DNA from: an uncultured Pseudomonas sp.
GTDB taxonomy: Bacteria > Pseudomonadota > Gammaproteobacteria > Pseudomonadales > Pseudomonadaceae
Reading direction: 5' to 3'
Length of the DNA stretch: 20,821 nucleotides
Assembly (NCBI RefSeq): GCF_946885955.1
Contig: NZ_CAMPHI010000064.1
Location: forward strand, 1-20,821
The notes below the pieces were generated by a model that ran no database searches, was not told where the DNA came from, and saw only the letters and a program-made list of their open reading frames with translations. How positions within the stretch are numbered: the stretch's first letter is position 1; every line of letters begins with the position of its first letter. The translations under genes and the position numbers were made by a program. Positions 6,756-12,965 of this stretch are shown one piece after another.

Positions 6756-6789
6756 CCGGCGTATGCGGCCCGAACAAGAGGAGCCTCCC

Positions 6790-7911
6790 GTGCACAACGT
6801 CGTGATTAGTGGCACAGGTCTTTTTACCCCGGCTAACAGCATTTCCAACGAGGAACTGGTGGAGGCATTCAATGCCTACGTTCAGCTGTTCAATAGCGAG
6901 AATGCCGAGGCGATCGCCCGGGGTGAAGTCGAAGCCCTGACCGAGTCCAGCAGCGCCTTTATCGAGCGCGCATCGGGGATCAAAAGCCGTTTCGTCATCG
7001 ATAAAGCCGGCATCCTCGATCCCACGCGCATGACCCCACGCATTCCCGAGCGCTCCAACGAGGAGTGGGGGATTCTCTGTGAGATGGCGGTTGCCGCCGC
7101 CCAGCAAGCCTTGAGCCGCGCCGGCAAGACCGCGGCCGATATCGACGGGGTGATCGTCGCCTGCTCCAACCTGCAGCGCGCTTATCCGGCGGTGGCCATC
7201 GAAGTGCAGGCGGCGTTGGGCATCCAGGGCTTCGGTTATGACATGAACGTGGCCTGTTCTTCGGCGACCTTCGGCCTCCAGGCGGCGGCCAACAGCGTGC
7301 AGCTCGGCCAGGCGCGGGCGATTCTGATGGTCAACCCGGAGATCTGCACCGGCCACCTGAACTTCCGCGACCGCGACAGCCACTTCATCTTCGGCGATGC
7401 CTGCACCGCGGTGATCGTCGAACGCGCGGACCTGGCGACCTCGCCGTATCAGTTCGAGATCGTCGGCACCAAATTGCTGACCCAGTTCAGTAACAACATC
7501 CGCAATAACTTCGGCTTTCTCAACCGCGCGGCGGAAGAGGGCATAGGCGCGCGCGACAAGCTGTTCGTCCAGGAAGGCCGCAAGGTGTTCCGCGATGTTT
7601 GCCCGATGGTCGCCGAGCTGATCGCCACGCACCTGGCCGAGAATCAGCTGAATGTCAGCGATGTGAAGCGTTTCTGGCTGCACCAGGCCAACCTCAATAT
7701 GAACCTGCTGATCGCTCGCAAGCTGCTCGGTCGCGATGCAGAGCCCCATGAGGCGCCGGTAATTCTCGATACCTATGCCAACACCAGTTCGGCCGGCTCG
7801 GTGATCGCCCTGCACAAGAATCAGGACGACCTGCCGAGCGGCAGCCTGGGCGTGCTCAGCTCGTTCGGCGCCGGTTATTCCATCGGCAGCGTGATACTGC
7901 GTAAGCGCTGA
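6790..7911 (+). CDS. 3-oxoacyl-ACP synthase III family protein (KAS III-like, PA3286-type)
   Basis: A 373-residue condensing enzyme of the FabH/KAS III fold. The catalytic triad is visible: C156 in [10 protein letters not shown]298 in [10 protein letters not shown] and N331 in TYANTSSAG. The N-terminal half carries a long insertion around residues 25-60 relative to short FabH proteins. From memory, the P. aeruginosa homologue condenses medium-chain acyl-CoA from beta-oxidation with malonyl-ACP, feeding fatty-acid synthesis; that activity is an extrapolation here. GTG 6790 is preferred over ATG 6763 because AAGAGGAG (6776-6783) is placed six bases before it and the KAS fold begins immediately (HNVVISGTG). 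The stop codon overlaps the sigma factor ATG by one base (TGATG), so the two are translationally coupled. Confidence 0.85.
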
Positions 7912-8522
7912 TGAATTATCCCGCTGACAGCGCCTTGCTCGCTCGCCTGCTGGCCGGCGAGCAAAAAGCCTTTCGCGAGTTGGTCGCCACCTACCAGAGC
8001 GCGATGCGTGCGGTGGCGTACGCCATCGTTGGCAGCCGCAATGCCGACGAAGTGGTGCAGGACGCCTGGCTGGCGGTGGTGCGCAATCTGGAAGGTTTTC
8101 AGGGTCGTTCGAGCTTGAAAACCTGGTTGCTGACCATCACCGCCAACACGGCCAAGACCCGCCTCAAGCACAACCGCCGCGAAGTGTTGCTGGACGATAT
8201 CCCCTCGCCCCACGGCAGCATTGGCGACGAACGTTTCGCCGACGATGGCCACTGGCTGCTGGCGCCCCACGCCTGGCATCAGGACACGCCTGAAGCGCTG
8301 CTGACCGAGGCCGAACTGCTCGAATGCCTGGAGAAAACCCTGGCCTGTCTCTCCGAGCAACAAGGCAGCGTGCTGCACCTGCGCGAGCGTGAAGGCCTGG
8401 AACTGGAGGAGATCTGTAATCTATTGCAGGTCTCGCTCTCCAATGTTCGGGTGCTGTTGCACCGCGCGCGCCTCAAGGTGTTCGCCACGCTGGAGCATTT
8501 CGAGGAGACCGGGGCATGTTGA
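7911..8522 (+). CDS. ECF sigma-70 factor
   Basis: A 203-residue extracytoplasmic-function sigma factor. Region 2 covers about residues 18-88, with the typical DEVVQDAWLAVVRNLEGFQG and SSLKTWLLTITANTA segments. Region 4 covers about 136-190 (CLEKTLACLSEQQGSVLHLRE, then LSNVRVLLHRARLKV). The linker between them is rich in charged residues, and there is no C-terminal extension. The start overlaps the preceding stop by one base, and the stop overlaps the anti-sigma gene by seven bases. It lies just before an RiPP metallophore operon whose precursor gene has an ECF-type promoter, which suggests that promoter is its target. It has no obvious autoregulatory promoter within this operon. Confidence 0.92.
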   Translation: MNYPADSALLARLLAGEQKAFRELVATYQSAMRAVAYAIVGSRNADEVVQDAWLAVVRNLEGFQGRSSLKTWLLTITANTAKTRLKHNRREVLLDDIPSPHGSIGDERFADDGHWLLAPHAWHQDTPEALLTEAELLECLEKTLACLSEQQGSVLHLREREGLELEEICNLLQVSLSNVRVLLHRARLKVFATLEHFEETGAC

Positions 8523-8749
8523 GTTGCAAGGAACTGGTTGCCCAATCCAGCGATTTTCTCGACGGTCATATGAGCCTGCGCAAGCGCCTGGCCGTGCGCC
8601 TGCATCTTGCCATGTGCCAGAACTGCCAGCGCTTTATCAGGCAGATGCGTTTGAGCCAGGCGGTATTGCGCCGACTGCCACAGGGAAAAAGTCCCGAACT
8701 CGATGCCCTTGCGGCGAAACTGGCCGAGCTGCGGCGCAACCGTTCGTAA
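8516..8749 (+). CDS. Short zinc-finger (ZAS-type) anti-sigma factor
   Basis: A 77-residue soluble protein whose start codon lies inside the sigma factor gene (overlap 8516-8522). The signature HLAMCQNC gives H30-x3-C34-x2-C37. With C4 in MLSCKEL these can complete the four zinc ligands of the anti-sigma ZAS domain. There is no transmembrane segment, unlike many anti-sigma factors, so it should sense a cytoplasmic signal. ZAS proteins such as RsrA and ChrR release their sigma factor on thiol oxidation or loss of metal. Whether this one senses copper, zinc or redox state is not shown. The C-terminal tail (residues 42-77) is basic and helical in character. Confidence 0.82.
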   Translation: MLSCKELVAQSSDFLDGHMSLRKRLAVRLHLAMCQNCQRFIRQMRLSQAVLRRLPQGKSPELDALAAKLAELRRNRS

Positions 8750-8866: not shown

Positions 8867-8892
8867 TGTAACGCCCGCCCGCTTGCTACGTC
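8867..8892 (+). promoter_or_regulatory. ECF-type promoter of the RiPP metallophore operon
   Basis: A -35 element TGTAAC (8867-8872) and a -10 element CGTC (8889-8892) are separated by 16 bases, the classic ECF spacing. The pair lies 55 bases upstream of the precursor start codon, leaving a normal leader with GGAG at 8937-8940. A small dyad, AGGAGA (8847-8852) and TCTCCT (8862-8867), abuts the -35. The adjacent ECF sigma factor is the obvious candidate to use it. Confidence 0.7.
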
Positions 8893-8947: not shown

Positions 8948-9250
8948 ATGAAACACCTGAATACCCTAGTTGCCACCCTGGGCGCCGCTTTCTTGAGCAG
9001 TGCCGCGTTCAGCGTACAGGCCGCCGGCAACCCCTTCGCCGCGCAGGAACTGAGCAGCGGCTACAGCATGGCCGCAGCCGAGAAGTCCGCCGAAGGTTCC
9101 TGCGGCGAGGGCAAGTGTGGTGCCGAGATGAAGGCCGAGAACGAGGGCAAGTGCGGCGAAGGCAAGTGCGGTGGCGCAGCCAAGAGCGAGGCCAAGAGCG
9201 ACGCTGAGGGCAAGTGTGGCGAAGGCAAATGCGGTGCCGAGAAGGCTTGA
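8948..9250 (+). CDS. hvfA: HvfA/bufferin-type RiPP metallophore precursor with EGKCG repeats
   Basis: A 100-residue Cys-rich precursor. Residues 1-25 or so are a Sec signal peptide (MKHLNTLVATLGAAFLSSAA, then FSVQA). The mature part is low-complexity and rich in Glu, Lys, Ala and Gly, with six cysteines (C52, C57, C69, C74, C90, C95). Every cysteine sits in an EGxCG unit, and the units form three tandem pairs. In the Haemophilus HvfA and Caulobacter bufferin systems, MNIO enzymes convert cysteines of EGKCG motifs into copper-binding oxazolone/thioamide or thiooxazole groups. The same chemistry is expected here but not shown. The ATG at 8948 follows GGAG by seven bases. An upstream in-frame GTG extension is rejected because it would bury the signal peptide. 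The maturase gene follows directly. Confidence 0.9.
   Translation: MKHLNTLVATLGAAFLSSAAFSVQAAGNPFAAQELSSGYSMAAAEKSAEGSCGEGKCGAEMKAENEGKCGEGKCGGAAKSEAKSDAEGKCGEGKCGAEKA
9092..9235 (+). repeat. Three EG(K/S)CGEGKCG-coding repeats in the precursor gene
   Basis: Ten-codon units at 9092-9121, 9143-9172 and 9206-9235 encode EGSCGEGKCG, EGKCGEGKCG and EGKCGEGKCG. The spacer peptides between them differ in length (7 and 11 residues). The first half-unit carries serine in place of lysine. Synonymous third-base differences (TGT/TGC, GAG/GAA, AAG/AAA) show the copies are not very recent duplications. Confidence 0.9.
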
Positions 9251-9271
9251 GTGAGAGCGGGAGCGCAGGGC

Positions 9272-10111
9272 ATGCAGACGACATTCGTCAGTGGCGCCGG
9301 GCTTGGCCTGCGCCGCGGCCTGCTCGGCGCGTTGCAGGACTGCAGCGCGGCCGAGCTGGATTTCCTCGAAGTGGCGCCGGAAAACTGGATCGGTGTCGGC
9401 GGTCGGCTGGGCAAGCAGTTGCGCGCGCTGACCGAGCGCCTGCCGTTTCTCTGCCATGGCCTGTCGCTCAACCTGGGCGGTTTCGCCCCGCTGGACATGC
9501 AACTGCTCAAGGCCATCAAGGGCTTTCTCGATGAGCACGGTATCCGTGGCTACAGCGAACACCTGTCGGCCTGCGCCGACGACGGCCAGCTGTATGACCT
9601 GATGCCGCTGCCGTTCTGCGAGGAGTCGGTGGAACGCATCGCCGCGCGTATAGGCGTTGTGCAAGACGTGCTCGAACGACCATTGATCATCGAGAACGTC
9701 TCGGCCTATGCGCAGCTGCCAGGCGAGCTGGACGAGGCGGACTTCGTCCGTGCGGTGCTGGAACGGGCCGACTGCCAACTGCTGCTCGATGTGAACAACC
9801 TGTTCGTCAACAGCATCAATTTCGGTTTCGACCCCCAGGCCTATATCGCCGCCATGCCCGGGGAGCGTATCGCCTATATGCATGTCGCCGGGCATTACGA
9901 CGAAGCCGCGGATCTGAAGATCGACACCCATGGCGCGCCGGTGATCGACCCGGTGTGGGCGTTGCTCGAACATGCCTATGCGATGCATGGCGTGCGCCCG
10001 ACGCTGCTGGAGCGCGACTTCAACTTCCCGTCGATTGCCGAGCTGTACGACGAAGTCGCGCAGATTCGCCGGTTGCAAGCGTCCGGCCAGCAGCGGAGTT
10101 ACGGCACATGA
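9272..10111 (+). CDS. hvfB: MNIO (DUF692) RiPP maturase, HvfB/BufB-type
   Basis: A 279-residue multinuclear non-heme iron-dependent oxidase with a TIM-barrel fold. The likely iron ligands of the family are spread along the barrel: H62 (CHGLSLNLGG), H97 (YSEHLSACADDG), E141 (IIENVSAY), D173 and N176 (LLDVNNLFVN), H204 and H208 (MHVAGHYD), D218 and H220 (KIDTHGAP) and E247 (LLERDFNFP). Relatives oxidise cysteines in precursor peptides using oxygen. ATG 9272 is preferred over GTG 9251, which abuts the precursor stop, because GGGAG (9259-9263) is well placed and the conserved segment begins soon after. The stop overlaps the partner gene by four bases (ATGA), indicating coupled translation. Cytoplasmic action before export of the precursor is expected. 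Confidence 0.92.
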   Translation: MQTTFVSGAGLGLRRGLLGALQDCSAAELDFLEVAPENWIGVGGRLGKQLRALTERLPFLCHGLSLNLGGFAPLDMQLLKAIKGFLDEHGIRGYSEHLSACADDGQLYDLMPLPFCEESVERIAARIGVVQDVLERPLIIENVSAYAQLPGELDEADFVRAVLERADCQLLLDVNNLFVNSINFGFDPQAYIAAMPGERIAYMHVAGHYDEAADLKIDTHGAPVIDPVWALLEHAYAMHGVRPTLLERDFNFPSIAELYDEVAQIRRLQASGQQRSYGT

Positions 10112-10818
10112 GCGGCGTAGAACTGCAACGCGCCTTCGCCGCACGCATCCGTCGGCCTGACGAGCAGCCGCTGCTCGAAGGGATCGATGCCGCACGCATG
10201 GCGGTGTACGAAAGCCTGTTCTTCAACAATATCGAAAGCTTTATCAGCGGCGCCTTCCCGGTATTGCGCACGCTATTCGACGCGCAGCGCTGGAATTGCT
10301 TGGTGCGTGGCTTTATCGCCGAGCACCGCGCCGCGACCCCGTATTTTCTGGAGATCAGCCAGGAGTTTCTCGGCTGGCTGCAACAGGGCTATGTCGCAGA
10401 ACCTGGTGACCCGGCGTTTATCGCCGAGCTGGCGCACTACGAGTGGGTCGAGTTGGCCCTGGATGTCAGCGATGCGCCGCTTGCTCCGCATGGTTGGTCG
10501 GCCCTGGCCTGGCCGCTGGCCTACCGCTGGCCGGTGCAGCGGCTTGGCGTCGACTACCAGCCCGCCACGCCGCCGGAGCAGACCACCTGTTTGCTGGCCT
10601 GGCGCGACCCGCACGACCAGGTGCGCTTTATGCAGCTGAGCCCCTTCGCCTACCAACTGGCCCTCGGCCTGCAAGCCGGCGCGAGCGCCGAGGCCGCCTT
10701 GCGGCAGCTGGCCGACGAGCATGGTCTGGCGGCCGATGCGGACTATTTCAACAACGCCCAACAACTGCTCGATGACTGGCAGCGCCAGGGCATCTGGCGC
10801 GCCCCCTTGACCGCCTGA
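10108..10818 (+). CDS. hvfC: DUF2063 MNIO partner protein, HvfC/BufC-type
   Basis: A 236-residue protein whose N-terminal part (about residues 4-95) is a DUF2063 domain, with the segments LQRAFAARIRRPDE, ESLFFNNIESFISGAFPVLR and ATPYFLEISQEFLGWL. The C-terminal half (about 120-230) is the recognition-domain-like region found in MNIO partner proteins. In HvfB/HvfC and BufB/BufC systems this protein binds the precursor and is needed for modification. Pfam labels the N-terminal region putative DNA-binding, but in this context a substrate-delivery role is far more likely. The ATG at 10108 overlaps the maturase stop by four bases. A longer in-frame extension upstream inside the maturase gene is rejected. 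Confidence 0.9.
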   Translation: MSGVELQRAFAARIRRPDEQPLLEGIDAARMAVYESLFFNNIESFISGAFPVLRTLFDAQRWNCLVRGFIAEHRAATPYFLEISQEFLGWLQQGYVAEPGDPAFIAELAHYEWVELALDVSDAPLAPHGWSALAWPLAYRWPVQRLGVDYQPATPPEQTTCLLAWRDPHDQVRFMQLSPFAYQLALGLQAGASAEAALRQLADEHGLAADADYFNNAQQLLDDWQRQGIWRAPLTA

Positions 10819-10845
10819 CGTTGCGGTGACTTTGGAGATATCCCC

Positions 10846-11445
10846 ATGCTGACTTTCCTCAACCGACTCCAGGACGCCCTGGACGCCACCCGCCGCCTGG
10901 ATTTCCTCGGGCCCTTGCTGCTGCGCCTGTACCTGGTGCCGATTTTCTGGATGGCCGGTACCCATAAACTCTCCGACATCGAGGCCATCGCCGCCTGGTT
11001 CGGCAATCCCGACTGGGGGCTGGGTTTGCCGTTTCCCGAGGTGCTGGCCTGGGCCGCGGCGCTGACCGAAGCCGGCGGCGCAATCCTGTTGCTGTTTGGC
11101 CTGGCGGTGCGTTGGATCAGCATCCCGCTGATCGTCACCATGCTGGTGGCGATCTTCACCGTGCATCTGCCCTTCGGCTGGCAAGCGATTGCCGATGCAT
11201 CGGCGCCGTTCGGTAACGACCGGGTGCTGGCGTCGGTGGAGAAAATCGCGCGGGCGCGGGAAATTCTCAAGGAGCACGGCAACTACGACTGGTTGACCAG
11301 CAGTGGCAAATTCGTGGTGCTGAATAACGGCATCGAATTCGCCGCCACCTATCTGATCATGCTGGTGGTGCTGTTCTTCAGCGGTGCCGGACGTTGGTTG
11401 AGCCTGGATTATTGGCTGGCCAAAGTGCTGCGTCGGCCGGTTTAA
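10846..11445 (+). CDS. DoxX-family membrane protein, last gene of RiPP operon
   Basis: A 199-residue inner-membrane protein of the DoxX family with four hydrophobic helices (about residues 20-37, 64-86, 91-108 and 163-179). The family-typical ALTEAGGAILLLFGLAVRW stretch lies in the second helix and the loop after it. A hydrophilic loop at about 110-158 faces one side of the membrane. DoxX genes close many HvfABC/bufferin clusters, so a role in electron transfer, membrane redox balance or handling of the modified peptide is plausible, but none is proven. It begins 27 bases after the partner gene, with GGAG at 10834-10837. No clear terminator follows, so some read-through into the porin gene is possible. 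Confidence 0.85.
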   Translation: MLTFLNRLQDALDATRRLDFLGPLLLRLYLVPIFWMAGTHKLSDIEAIAAWFGNPDWGLGLPFPEVLAWAAALTEAGGAILLLFGLAVRWISIPLIVTMLVAIFTVHLPFGWQAIADASAPFGNDRVLASVEKIARAREILKEHGNYDWLTSSGKFVVLNNGIEFAATYLIMLVVLFFSGAGRWLSLDYWLAKVLRRPV

Positions 11446-11502: not shown

Positions 11503-11648
11503 CGAAAGGAGTAAAAGTTCAGTCAGTCATTAAAATTTTATATATCGGCCACGGCGCTGAAATATCCCCTCGCCAAGATTCCCCTCAGCACGAACGAGCC
11601 CCCCGCTCGGGTGTTTTCAACACTAAAAGTCTATTAGAGGAATCCTTG

Positions 11649-12965
11649 ATGATCCGTAAGCACAGCTTTCGTGGAGTAGCGGCCGGTTTCGCTACCAGCG
11701 CCCTGGCTCTGGCCGTTTCCGCCCAGGCTTTCGCCGGTACCGTGAGCACCGACGGTGCCGATCTCGTGATCAAGACCAAGGGCGGCCTGGAAGTCGCCAC
11801 TACCGACAAGGAATTCAGCTTCAAGCTGGGCGGTAAGTTGCAGTGGGATGCCACCAACTTCGACGGCCTGATGGCCGGCCGTCAGAACAACCCGTTCGAT
11901 GACACCTTCAACACCTTTATTCGTCGCGGCGAAGTCGGTTTTGAAGGCGTGGCCTACAAGGACTGGGGTTATGGCCTGCGTGTCAGCTATGACGAAGATG
12001 ATGGCACCGACTTCGATCGTGCCTTTATCACCTACAGCGGTCTGGGTTTTGCCGACGTGACCGTGGGCCAGTTCGGTGTCGACTACGGCCTGGAAGGCAC
12101 CACCAGCTCGTCGTGGATTACCGCCATCGAGCGTCCGTTCATGTACGACTTCCTCAATGGCGACGAAGATGCCAAATTCGGTATCAACGTGATGCATACC
12201 GGCGACAACTACGGCCTGATGGCCCAGGTCGCCCATTACGACAAGTATGAGTCTGACGATAACGACGAGCTGTTCGGCTACACCTTGCGCGCCAACTGGG
12301 CGCCTTATCTGAATGGCACCGACGTGATCCACCTGGGCGCCAACTTCCACAGCAACAGCCCGGATGACAACAGCTCCAGCGTACGCACGCGCATGGGCAT
12401 CCGCAGCGACGACGACGCGCGCATCGCCTTCGGCAGCACCGCCGTTACCGACAAGGACGTTGAATGGGTACTGGAAACCGGTGCTCAGTTCGGTTCCTTC
12501 CGTGCGGCTGCCGAATACTTCCAGCGCCAGGTTTCCGGTGAAACGGCCGGTGGCTTGGACGCCGACGTGGATGCGAGCGGCTACTACGGCCAGCTTTCCT
12601 ACATGTTCGGCGGCGCTCGCAACTACAAGGCCGGTGCCGGCAAGTGGGACAAGCCGACCAATATGAACGGAACCTTCGAAGTATTCGCGCGCTATGAAAG
12701 CAGCACCGTCGACGCCGACGCGGGCGCCATCCCGGCGCAGATGATGAGCGGTGTGGTGGGCGTGGTCGCGGACGACCTGAGCGATGAGTTCAAAGCCAAT
12801 GCGATGGTGGTGGGGGTCAACTACTTCGCCACCCCGGCGGTGCGCATGAGCCTGAACTACGTCGACTATGAAGTCGACAACCTCGACACCAACTCGCAAG
12901 TCGGTGGTGAAGATGTGCAGGACGATGGCAAAGCCATTATCGGCCGCCTGCAGTACGTGTTCTAA
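11649..12965 (+). CDS. Phosphate-selective porin, OprP/OprO family
   Basis: A 438-residue outer-membrane beta-barrel porin. A signal peptide of about 30 residues ends near VSAQAFA, with GTVSTDG as the probable mature start. The barrel is marked by alternating aromatic and polar strands, motifs such as KLGGKLQWDATNFDG and FIRRGEVGFEG, and a C-terminal strand ending in phenylalanine (IGRLQYVF), the signal for BAM insertion. OprP and OprO form anion-selective trimers for phosphate or polyphosphate. The pore residues that separate the two cannot be judged here. ATG 11649 is used rather than the adjacent TTG at 11646, with AGAGGA at 11636-11641. The position just after the RiPP operon matches my memory of oprO in P. 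aeruginosa, which may be an accident of synteny. Confidence 0.88.
   Translation: MIRKHSFRGVAAGFATSALALAVSAQAFAGTVSTDGADLVIKTKGGLEVATTDKEFSFKLGGKLQWDATNFDGLMAGRQNNPFDDTFNTFIRRGEVGFEGVAYKDWGYGLRVSYDEDDGTDFDRAFITYSGLGFADVTVGQFGVDYGLEGTTSSSWITAIERPFMYDFLNGDEDAKFGINVMHTGDNYGLMAQVAHYDKYESDDNDELFGYTLRANWAPYLNGTDVIHLGANFHSNSPDDNSSSVRTRMGIRSDDDARIAFGSTAVTDKDVEWVLETGAQFGSFRAAAEYFQRQVSGETAGGLDADVDASGYYGQLSYMFGGARNYKAGAGKWDKPTNMNGTFEVFARYESSTVDADAGAIPAQMMSGVVGVVADDLSDEFKANAMVVGVNYFATPAVRMSLNYVDYEVDNLDTNSQVGGEDVQDDGKAIIGRLQYVF

What the first reader, a model, noticed from the sequence alone, without database searches (positions are those of the whole stretch)
8948..11445. Complete HvfABC/bufferin-type RiPP metallophore operon with DoxX
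A Sec-exported precursor whose six cysteines all lie in EG(K/S)CG units is followed, with overlaps or short gaps, by a DUF692 MNIO with its likely iron ligands present, a DUF2063 partner and a DoxX protein. Relatives in Haemophilus (HvfABC) and Caulobacter (bufferins) make copper-binding modified peptides. RiPP precursors with Sec signals are unusual. The modified product of this Pseudomonas-type version, and the metal it binds, are to my knowledge not described.
Basis: partly seen in the sequence, partly recalled or inferred. Interest (0 to 1): 0.9.

Follow-up and report, generated by a model that had tools for sequence, protein, structure and literature searches.

The report
Stress-controlled copper-peptide operon in Pseudomonas
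These four genes very probably make an exported peptide whose cysteines are turned into copper-binding rings, a recently described kind of system, and comparison of genomes suggests that in Pseudomonas a neighbouring stress-response switch turns it on together with enzymes that repair oxidised proteins.

The parts
8948..9250 (+). hvfA-like RiPP precursor, 100 aa: Sec signal (about 1-25, judged by eye), conserved leader NPFA..EL.SGY (28-39), six EG[KS]CG units in three pairs
   Evidence: (NF050137 53.0 bits, cut-off 19.5)
9251..10111 (+). hvfB-like MNIO maturase (DUF692); GTG 9251 abuts the stop of hvfA, ATG 9272 is the likelier start
   Evidence: PF05114 324.7 bits; NF003818 412 bits, cut-off 360
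10108..10818 (+). hvfC-like DUF2063 partner protein (RiPP recognition element family)
   Evidence: NF050145 272 bits, cut-off 142; 3dee, 62.5 bits
10846..11445 (+). hvfX-like DoxX membrane protein
   Evidence: PF07681 78.1 bits; NF050144 229.8 bits, cut-off 80
8867..8892 (+). predicted ECF-type promoter TGTAAC-N16-CGTC, 81 bp upstream of the hvfA start codon
   Evidence: (1 match in the window, 0.02 expected)
7911..8522 (+). ECF sigma factor, predicted activator of the operon
8516..8749 (+). zinc-finger (ZAS-type, zf-HC2) anti-sigma factor, 77 aa, C4/H30/C34/C37, overlapping the sigma gene
   Evidence: PF13490 32.8 bits, cut-off 22.2; NF052368 53.7 bits, cut-off 50
6763..7911 (+). FabH-like ketoacyl synthase (PRK07515 family), syntenic with the sigma/anti-sigma pair; part in the system unknown

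Best explanation
An HvfABCX (captophorin) operon controlled by its neighbouring ECF sigma / ZAS anti-sigma pair. In the cytoplasm, HvfC binds the conserved NPFA..EL.SGY leader and presents the six EG[KS]CG units to the di-iron MNIO HvfB, which oxidises each Lys/Ser-Cys pair by four electrons to a 5-thiooxazole. The modified peptide leaves through Sec and sequesters Cu(I) in the envelope; HvfX is an accessory membrane protein of unknown role. When the zinc-thiol centre of the anti-sigma factor is oxidised or loses zinc, the sigma factor is freed, recognises TGTAAC-N16-[CGA][GC]TC(T/C)A and transcribes hvfABCX together with msrB or msrBA, so that metal capture and repair of oxidised methionines rise together. 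Shown here: gene content, family membership, ligand-type residues, fold, promoter conservation, and presence of the msr element in most sampled genomes with the sigma factor and its absence from the sampled genomes without it. Inferred from relatives: the chemistry, export, Cu binding and the redox/zinc trigger.
Against: No wet data; no own genome of the window was held, so its msr genes could not be examined. Of 27 operon-bearing, sigma-positive genomes, the 16 with only a short msrB carry the element in 8 (6 with strict TGTAAC); in three of the misses (L199, L204, L210) the site is recognisable but degraded although the sigma factor is present. 3 of 15 sigma-positive genomes of the other set lack it. 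The 15 and 15 genomes were drawn from 44 and 81, not all were examined, and the sigma-negative ones may be one-sided in kinship. The sigma gene is more widespread than the operon and lies far from it in several genomes (L001 about 275 kb; L003 and L004 over 6 kb; G158 about 1.9 Mb). No element was found before fabH, the porin or, save one variant in L134, the sigma gene, so autoregulation is not generally supported; similar strings also occur inside the sigma coding sequence of L082, L091, L092 and L094. Microbulbifer authors hesitate to assign a copper-protective role (PMC12538549). The full-length HvfA equivalog cut-off is missed (59.9 against 95).
Confidence: 0.8

Rival explanations
1. Same operon and chemistry, but the operon is controlled by a copper or other metal regulator or by MexT-type regulators; the sigma/anti-sigma pair is only an old neighbour that serves fabH, the porin or msr.
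For: The sigma gene exists in many genomes without the operon (61 of 148 against 17 of 148), stays with fabH in 43 of 43 loci in hand and is far from hvfA in L001, L003, L004 and G158. In P. aeruginosa genes taken to be of this operon fall in mexT and nrdR mutants (PMC12607905 and PMC4409342 passages).
Against: The element stays at hvfA even where the pair is far away (L001, L003, L004; L155 of G158), and at short msrB it is present in 12 of 15 sigma-positive and 0 of 15 sigma-negative genomes. fabH, the sigma gene and the porin lack the element, one variant in L134 excepted.
Confidence: 0.2
2. The peptide's main job is as a sacrificial thiol/thiooxazole sink for HOCl and other oxidants in the envelope; copper binding is incidental.
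For: Shared promoter element with Msr genes; HOCl-induced RpoE2 control of the Haemophilus operon; doubts about copper protection in Microbulbifer.
Against: Characterised EGKCG products bind Cu, and excess copper or gold, besides oxidative stress, induces related operons according to PMC13097082.
Confidence: 0.2
3. The peptide acquires or delivers copper or another metal (a chalkophore or zinc-starvation metallophore) rather than buffering excess.
For: PA3282-PA3284 rise under zinc depletion in PAO1; methanobactin, made by a distant MNIO relative, is an acquisition peptide (recalled).
Against: No receptor or importer gene in the operon; no methanobactin precursor match; relatives are induced by excess metal or oxidants; a ZAS anti-sigma factor would respond to zinc loss by itself (inference).
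Confidence: 0.1

Closest known systems
HvfABCX / oxazolin of Haemophilus influenzae (PMC13419390: abstract, one section and passages seen)
   Same: Gene set A, B, C, X; Sec signal; six Cys in EGKCG pairs; NCBIfam HvfB, HvfC and HvfX cut-offs passed; RpoE2 and a ZAS anti-sigma factor control the homologous operon and msrAB (PMC7907618 passages)
   Different: One EGSCG unit; full-length HvfA equivalog cut-off not met (59.9 against 95); sigma/anti-sigma genes directly upstream and linked to fabH
Fontiphorin and gonophorin captophorins (PMC13097082: sections on bioinformatics, structures, function and landscape read)
   Same: EGKCG-type precursor with MNIO and DUF2063 partner; expected 5-thiooxazoles, -4 Da per unit, Cu binding
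   Different: Fontiphorin has seven sites and a minimal ABC cluster; the Pseudomonas product is uncharacterised in what I searched
Neisseria sigmaE (NMB2140-NMB2145) operon (PMC2893595 passages)
   Same: Sigma factor, ZAS anti-sigma with C4/H30/C34/C37, DoxX and three neighbouring genes, msrA/msrB co-regulated; -10 motif CGTCTAAH
   Different: There one autoregulated operon; here the hvf operon has its own element and the sigma genes mostly show none. -35 motif and spacing are reported differently there (GTMAGBWTT, 12-13 nt)
Bufferins Buf1/Buf2 (PMC12452194 sections; Caulobacter sigmaF, PMC3511200 passages)
   Same: MNIO, DUF2063, DoxX, Sec signal; ECF control in Buf1; sigmaF element GTAACC-N16-CGAA resembles the one here
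   Different: Precursor is not DUF2282; MNIO below the BufB cut-off; anti-sigma is ZAS/zf-HC2, not NrsF

Membership tests
HvfABCX / Buf_EGKCG-oxazolin branch of captophorins | Sec-exported precursor with repeated EGKCG-type cysteine units | tested here: met
   6 of 6 Cys in EG[KS]CG; NF050137 53.0 against 19.5. The signal peptide was judged by eye, no predictor was run.
HvfABCX / Buf_EGKCG-oxazolin branch of captophorins | Curated full-length HvfA equivalog (Haemophilus-type precursor) | tested here: not met
   NF050188 59.9 bits against 95; I take this model to mark close HvfA orthologues, not the branch
HvfABCX / Buf_EGKCG-oxazolin branch of captophorins | HvfB-type MNIO with iron ligands | tested here: met
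HvfABCX / Buf_EGKCG-oxazolin branch of captophorins | HvfC-type DUF2063 partner and HvfX-type DoxX in the operon | tested here: met
   NF050145 272 against 142; NF050144 229.8 against 80
HvfABCX / Buf_EGKCG-oxazolin branch of captophorins | 5-thiooxazole on the EGKCG cysteines; Cu binding by the product | not testable with these tools
   Needs mass spectrometry/NMR and metal titration
Buf1 bufferins | DUF2282 precursor and BufB-level MNIO | tested here: not met
   No Pfam family in the precursor; NF050167 248.3 against 310
Buf2 bufferins | Buf_6/12Cys precursor pattern | tested here: inconclusive
   No Buf2 model matched, but whether the libraries hold one was not checked; the cysteines lie in EGKCG units
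Methanobactins | MbnB-type MNIO and MbnA precursor | tested here: not met
   TIGR04159 36.6 against 325; no MbnA match to the precursor
ECF sigma with ZAS anti-sigma, Neisseria sigmaE / Haemophilus RpoE2 type | Small anti-sigma gene next to the sigma gene with Cys and His-x3-Cys-x2-Cys | tested here: met
   C4/H30/C34/C37 in the window and in 42 of 43 orthologues; NF052368 53.7 against 50
ECF sigma with ZAS anti-sigma, Neisseria sigmaE / Haemophilus RpoE2 type | Same ECF group (sequence orthology of the sigma factor) | tested here: inconclusive
   General sigma70-ECF model passed; TIGR02943 102.8 against 162.2; no ECF-group models held; RpoE2's group is called 13, PA3285's ECF293, in the papers
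ECF sigma with ZAS anti-sigma, Neisseria sigmaE / Haemophilus RpoE2 type | Controls an hvf-type operon and msr genes | tested here: inconclusive
   Supported by promoter comparison only; no expression data

The most novel reading that the evidence does not exclude
Across Pseudomonadaceae, including the P. aeruginosa group, one ECF sigma factor (PA3285 type, listed in a review among sigma factors without an anti-sigma factor) is in fact held by a small, apparently overlooked zinc-thiol anti-sigma protein. It drives a compact envelope-defence regulon: the captophorin operon plus methionine sulfoxide reductases, through TGTAAC-N16-[CGA][GC]TC. Zinc loss or thiol oxidation of the anti-sigma factor is the trigger, which would explain why the P. 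aeruginosa operon rises in zinc-starved cells without a listed Zur site.
Probability: 0.65. Interest if true: 0.6.

Novelty: new member of a known kind. Interest (0 to 1): 0.45.

Why it matters
The operon adds an uncharacterised member to a young class of copper-binding RiPPs in a well-studied genus. The regulatory link is more useful: it proposes an anti-sigma factor, a promoter and a target set for a Pseudomonas sigma factor for which I found no regulon in the library searched. It makes the question of what captophorins are for (excess copper, oxidant defence, or both) directly testable with reporters and single deletions. It also suggests that coupling of these peptides to methionine sulfoxide repair is shared by Haemophilus, Neisseria and Pseudomonas.

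Tried and rejected
Buf1 bufferin and methanobactin filings: rejected on curated cut-offs. Sigma-70 promoter: the scan shows none on the + strand before hvfA. Autoregulation of the sigma gene, or control of fabH or the porin by the same element: not generally supported; among 43 loci only L134 carries a variant before the sigma gene, and none was seen before the porin where one lies within the locus. Further regulon members: of 45 genome-wide matches of TGTAAC-N16-CGTC, 15 lie at hvfA or msrB; of the other 30, 18 were glanced at as ORF lists without finding a recognised target and 12 were not looked at; two groups of similar sites recur in three genomes each. Short EGKCG precursors in sigma-negative genomes: a first look at the MNIO loci of G041, G135 and G149 found none, but a domain search of all 148 genomes then gave one short precursor with one EGKCG unit in G135 (L285) and another in G041 (L289), both without the element, and in G041 a match interrupted by a stop next to its MNIO (L288) that was not read further. 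P. aeruginosa msrB regulation: the primary paper is not held; a review says msrB is NaOCl-induced, and its passages shown do not name this sigma factor. Paper search for 'bufferin' drowned in 'buffering'. Statements that something was not found in print rest on the ten searches, in the held library only.

Recalled, not from a call: that PA3283 is the UPF0276/MNIO protein, and hence how PA3281-PA3285 map to DoxX, DUF2063, MNIO, precursor and sigma; that PA2827 is msrB; that methanobactin is an acquisition peptide; that a contig length of 6,588,339 fits P. aeruginosa-group strain PA7.
Full report
What is there. The four genes reported are present at 8948-11445 on the + strand. The precursor has 100 residues, a Sec-type N-terminus (judged by eye), and six cysteines that all sit in EG[KS]CG units, arranged in three pairs; none of 200,000 shuffles of the mature part had three or more such units. 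The MNIO ORF begins with a GTG that abuts the precursor's stop codon, but an ATG at 9272 fits the starts of relatives better. The DUF2063 gene overlaps the MNIO gene by 4 bases and the DoxX gene follows after 27 bases.

What it makes. In characterised relatives the EGKCG cysteines become 5-thiooxazoles, and copper binding is reported (PMC13097082, sections read; PMC13419390, abstract, one section and passages; PMC12538549, abstract and passages). About 2,000 EGKCG precursors were already collected in PMC12452194 (section read). The operon is thus a new member of a known kind. I found no description of a Pseudomonas EGKCG product in my searches; MNIO clusters as such are reported in Pseudomonas (PMC13097082; PMC8719888 passages). 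A leader NPFA..EL.SGY lies right after the signal-peptide site; F30 is kept in 65 of 65, L35 and G38 in 64 of 65 and Y39 in 61 of 65 aligned precursors scoring 40 bits or more. It is the likely HvfC binding site (inference).

The promoter. An exact TGTAAC-N16-CGTC lies at 8867-8892, 81 bp before the start codon; 0.02 matches are expected in the window by chance. TGTAAC occurs 73-85 bp before hvfA in the window and in all 14 Pseudomonas and Halopseudomonas loci examined. In a second sample of 148 genomes of the family 17 genomes have the short precursor beside a close MNIO, and 17 of 17 have the element. A domain search of the same 148 genomes found HvfA repeats in 48: besides those 17, 30 genomes have an EF-hand-fused precursor (one locus each read; 0 of 30 with the element), and the two short precursors readable in G135 and G041, both sigma-negative, lack it too. 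The two samples overlap in four genomes, so the 32 rows are 28 distinct loci, with 24 distinct sites: TGTAAC is invariant, the spacer varies, and the -10 side reads [CGA][GC]TC[TCA]A. In 14 genomes the exact pattern with CGTC occurs 45 times, against 210 for the reversed control pattern; by coordinates 10 of the 45 lie before hvfA and 5 before msrB.

The switch. Directly upstream lie an ECF sigma gene and an overlapping 77-aa zf-HC2 gene. In 43 of 43 sigma loci in hand the small gene follows, and fabH lies before. Cys4, His30, Cys34 and Cys37 occupy the positions of the meningococcal anti-sigma factor NMB2145, where Cys34 is essential, Cys4 and Cys37 important and His30 dispensable (PMC2893595 passages); 42 of 43 orthologues keep them, the exception (L091) having a short called ORF. 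The sigma orthologue (280 bits or more) is in 61 of 148 genomes and in all 17 genomes with the short-precursor operon (Fisher p 6e-8, not corrected for kinship). All 14 genomes of the first set have it as well.

The regulon. The same element lies 56-70 bp before a Tat-type msrB in 10 of the 11 genomes that have this msrB, out of 27 operon-bearing genomes searched; the exception is G010. In L117 it is followed by msrA (SelR and PMSR domains). The other 16 genomes have only a short msrB, with the element in 8 (6 with strict TGTAAC); in L199, L204 and L210 a degraded form remains although the sigma factor is present. As a control I compared short msrB upstream regions (300 bp) of 15 of the 44 genomes with the sigma factor but without the operon and of 15 of the 81 without a sigma match: 12 of 15 against 0 of 15. 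In two sigma-negative genomes (L232, L234) flanking letters of the msrB promoter are kept while TGTAAC and GTC are gone. This is the best evidence that the sigma factor reads the element. Kinship is not corrected for and is the main weakness.

Parallel systems. H. influenzae RpoE2 with the ZAS anti-sigma HrsE controls msrAB and the DoxX/UPF0276/DUF2063 operon under HOCl (PMC7907618 passages). Neisseria sigmaE, with the -10 motif CGTCTAAH, controls its DoxX operon and msrA/msrB. Caulobacter sigmaF uses GTAACC-N16-CGAA before bufferin genes (PMC3511200 passages). The window therefore appears to work like these, though sigma orthology could not be tested.

P. aeruginosa. Genome G138 is a close relative: its porins match OprP (2o4v, 890.7 bits) and OprO (4rjw, 923.1 bits) over the full mature chain, with few differences in the printed alignments. 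It has fabH, sigma, anti-sigma, hvfA, B, C, X and two porins in a row, the element before hvfA and before msrB, and its anti-sigma passes NF052368. A review lists PA3285 among ECF sigma factors without an anti-sigma factor (PMC8999054 passages); if PA3285 is this sigma factor (recalled mapping), that entry may need revision. In PAO1 lacking znuA, PA3282-PA3284 rise 4.1- to 5.0-fold with no Zur site listed (PMC4542158 passages), as expected if zinc loss frees the sigma factor (inference); msrB is not named in that paper's main text. P. aeruginosa msrB is NaOCl-inducible (PMC8466533 passages).

Verdict. A real, complete and well-classified operon, ordinary in its chemistry class, with a testable and, as far as I could search, undescribed regulatory setting in Pseudomonas.

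Noticed in passing
window 6763-7911; L015, L016, L022, L028, L062: A FabH-like PRK07515 ketoacyl synthase is syntenic with the sigma/anti-sigma pair in 43 of 43 loci and lies shortly upstream of hvfA without that pair in Alcanivorax and Ketobacter loci; reason unknown.
   Followed up: partly
L171-L183, L251-L287 (EF-hand loci): 30 of 148 family genomes carry EGKCG precursors fused to EF-hands; none of the 30 loci read has the TGTAAC element, so the two precursor types are probably regulated differently.
   Followed up: partly
L202 (G138) about 1384-2974: In the P. aeruginosa-like genome msrB is followed by a glutathione-peroxidase-like and a MarR-like gene (identified by eye); the conserved spacer GACAGACTGG in short-msrB promoters may hold a second regulator's site.
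   Followed up: no
L015, L016, L022, L028, L044: Alcanivorax-group hvfA genes have a related but different upstream element, [TC]GTAACGTTTAC...CATC[TA]CTATA, with no sigma orthologue within the 6 kb held.
   Followed up: no
window 11646-12965; L130, L133-L140: A Porin_O_P gene follows the operon; in several relatives without the operon at this place a weaker-matching porin directly follows the sigma/anti-sigma pair.
   Followed up: partly
L006, L007, L008: Between the sigma/anti-sigma pair and hvfA lie about 2.4 to 4.3 kb of other DNA in these Pseudomonas loci, which looks like insertions; contents not examined.
   Followed up: no
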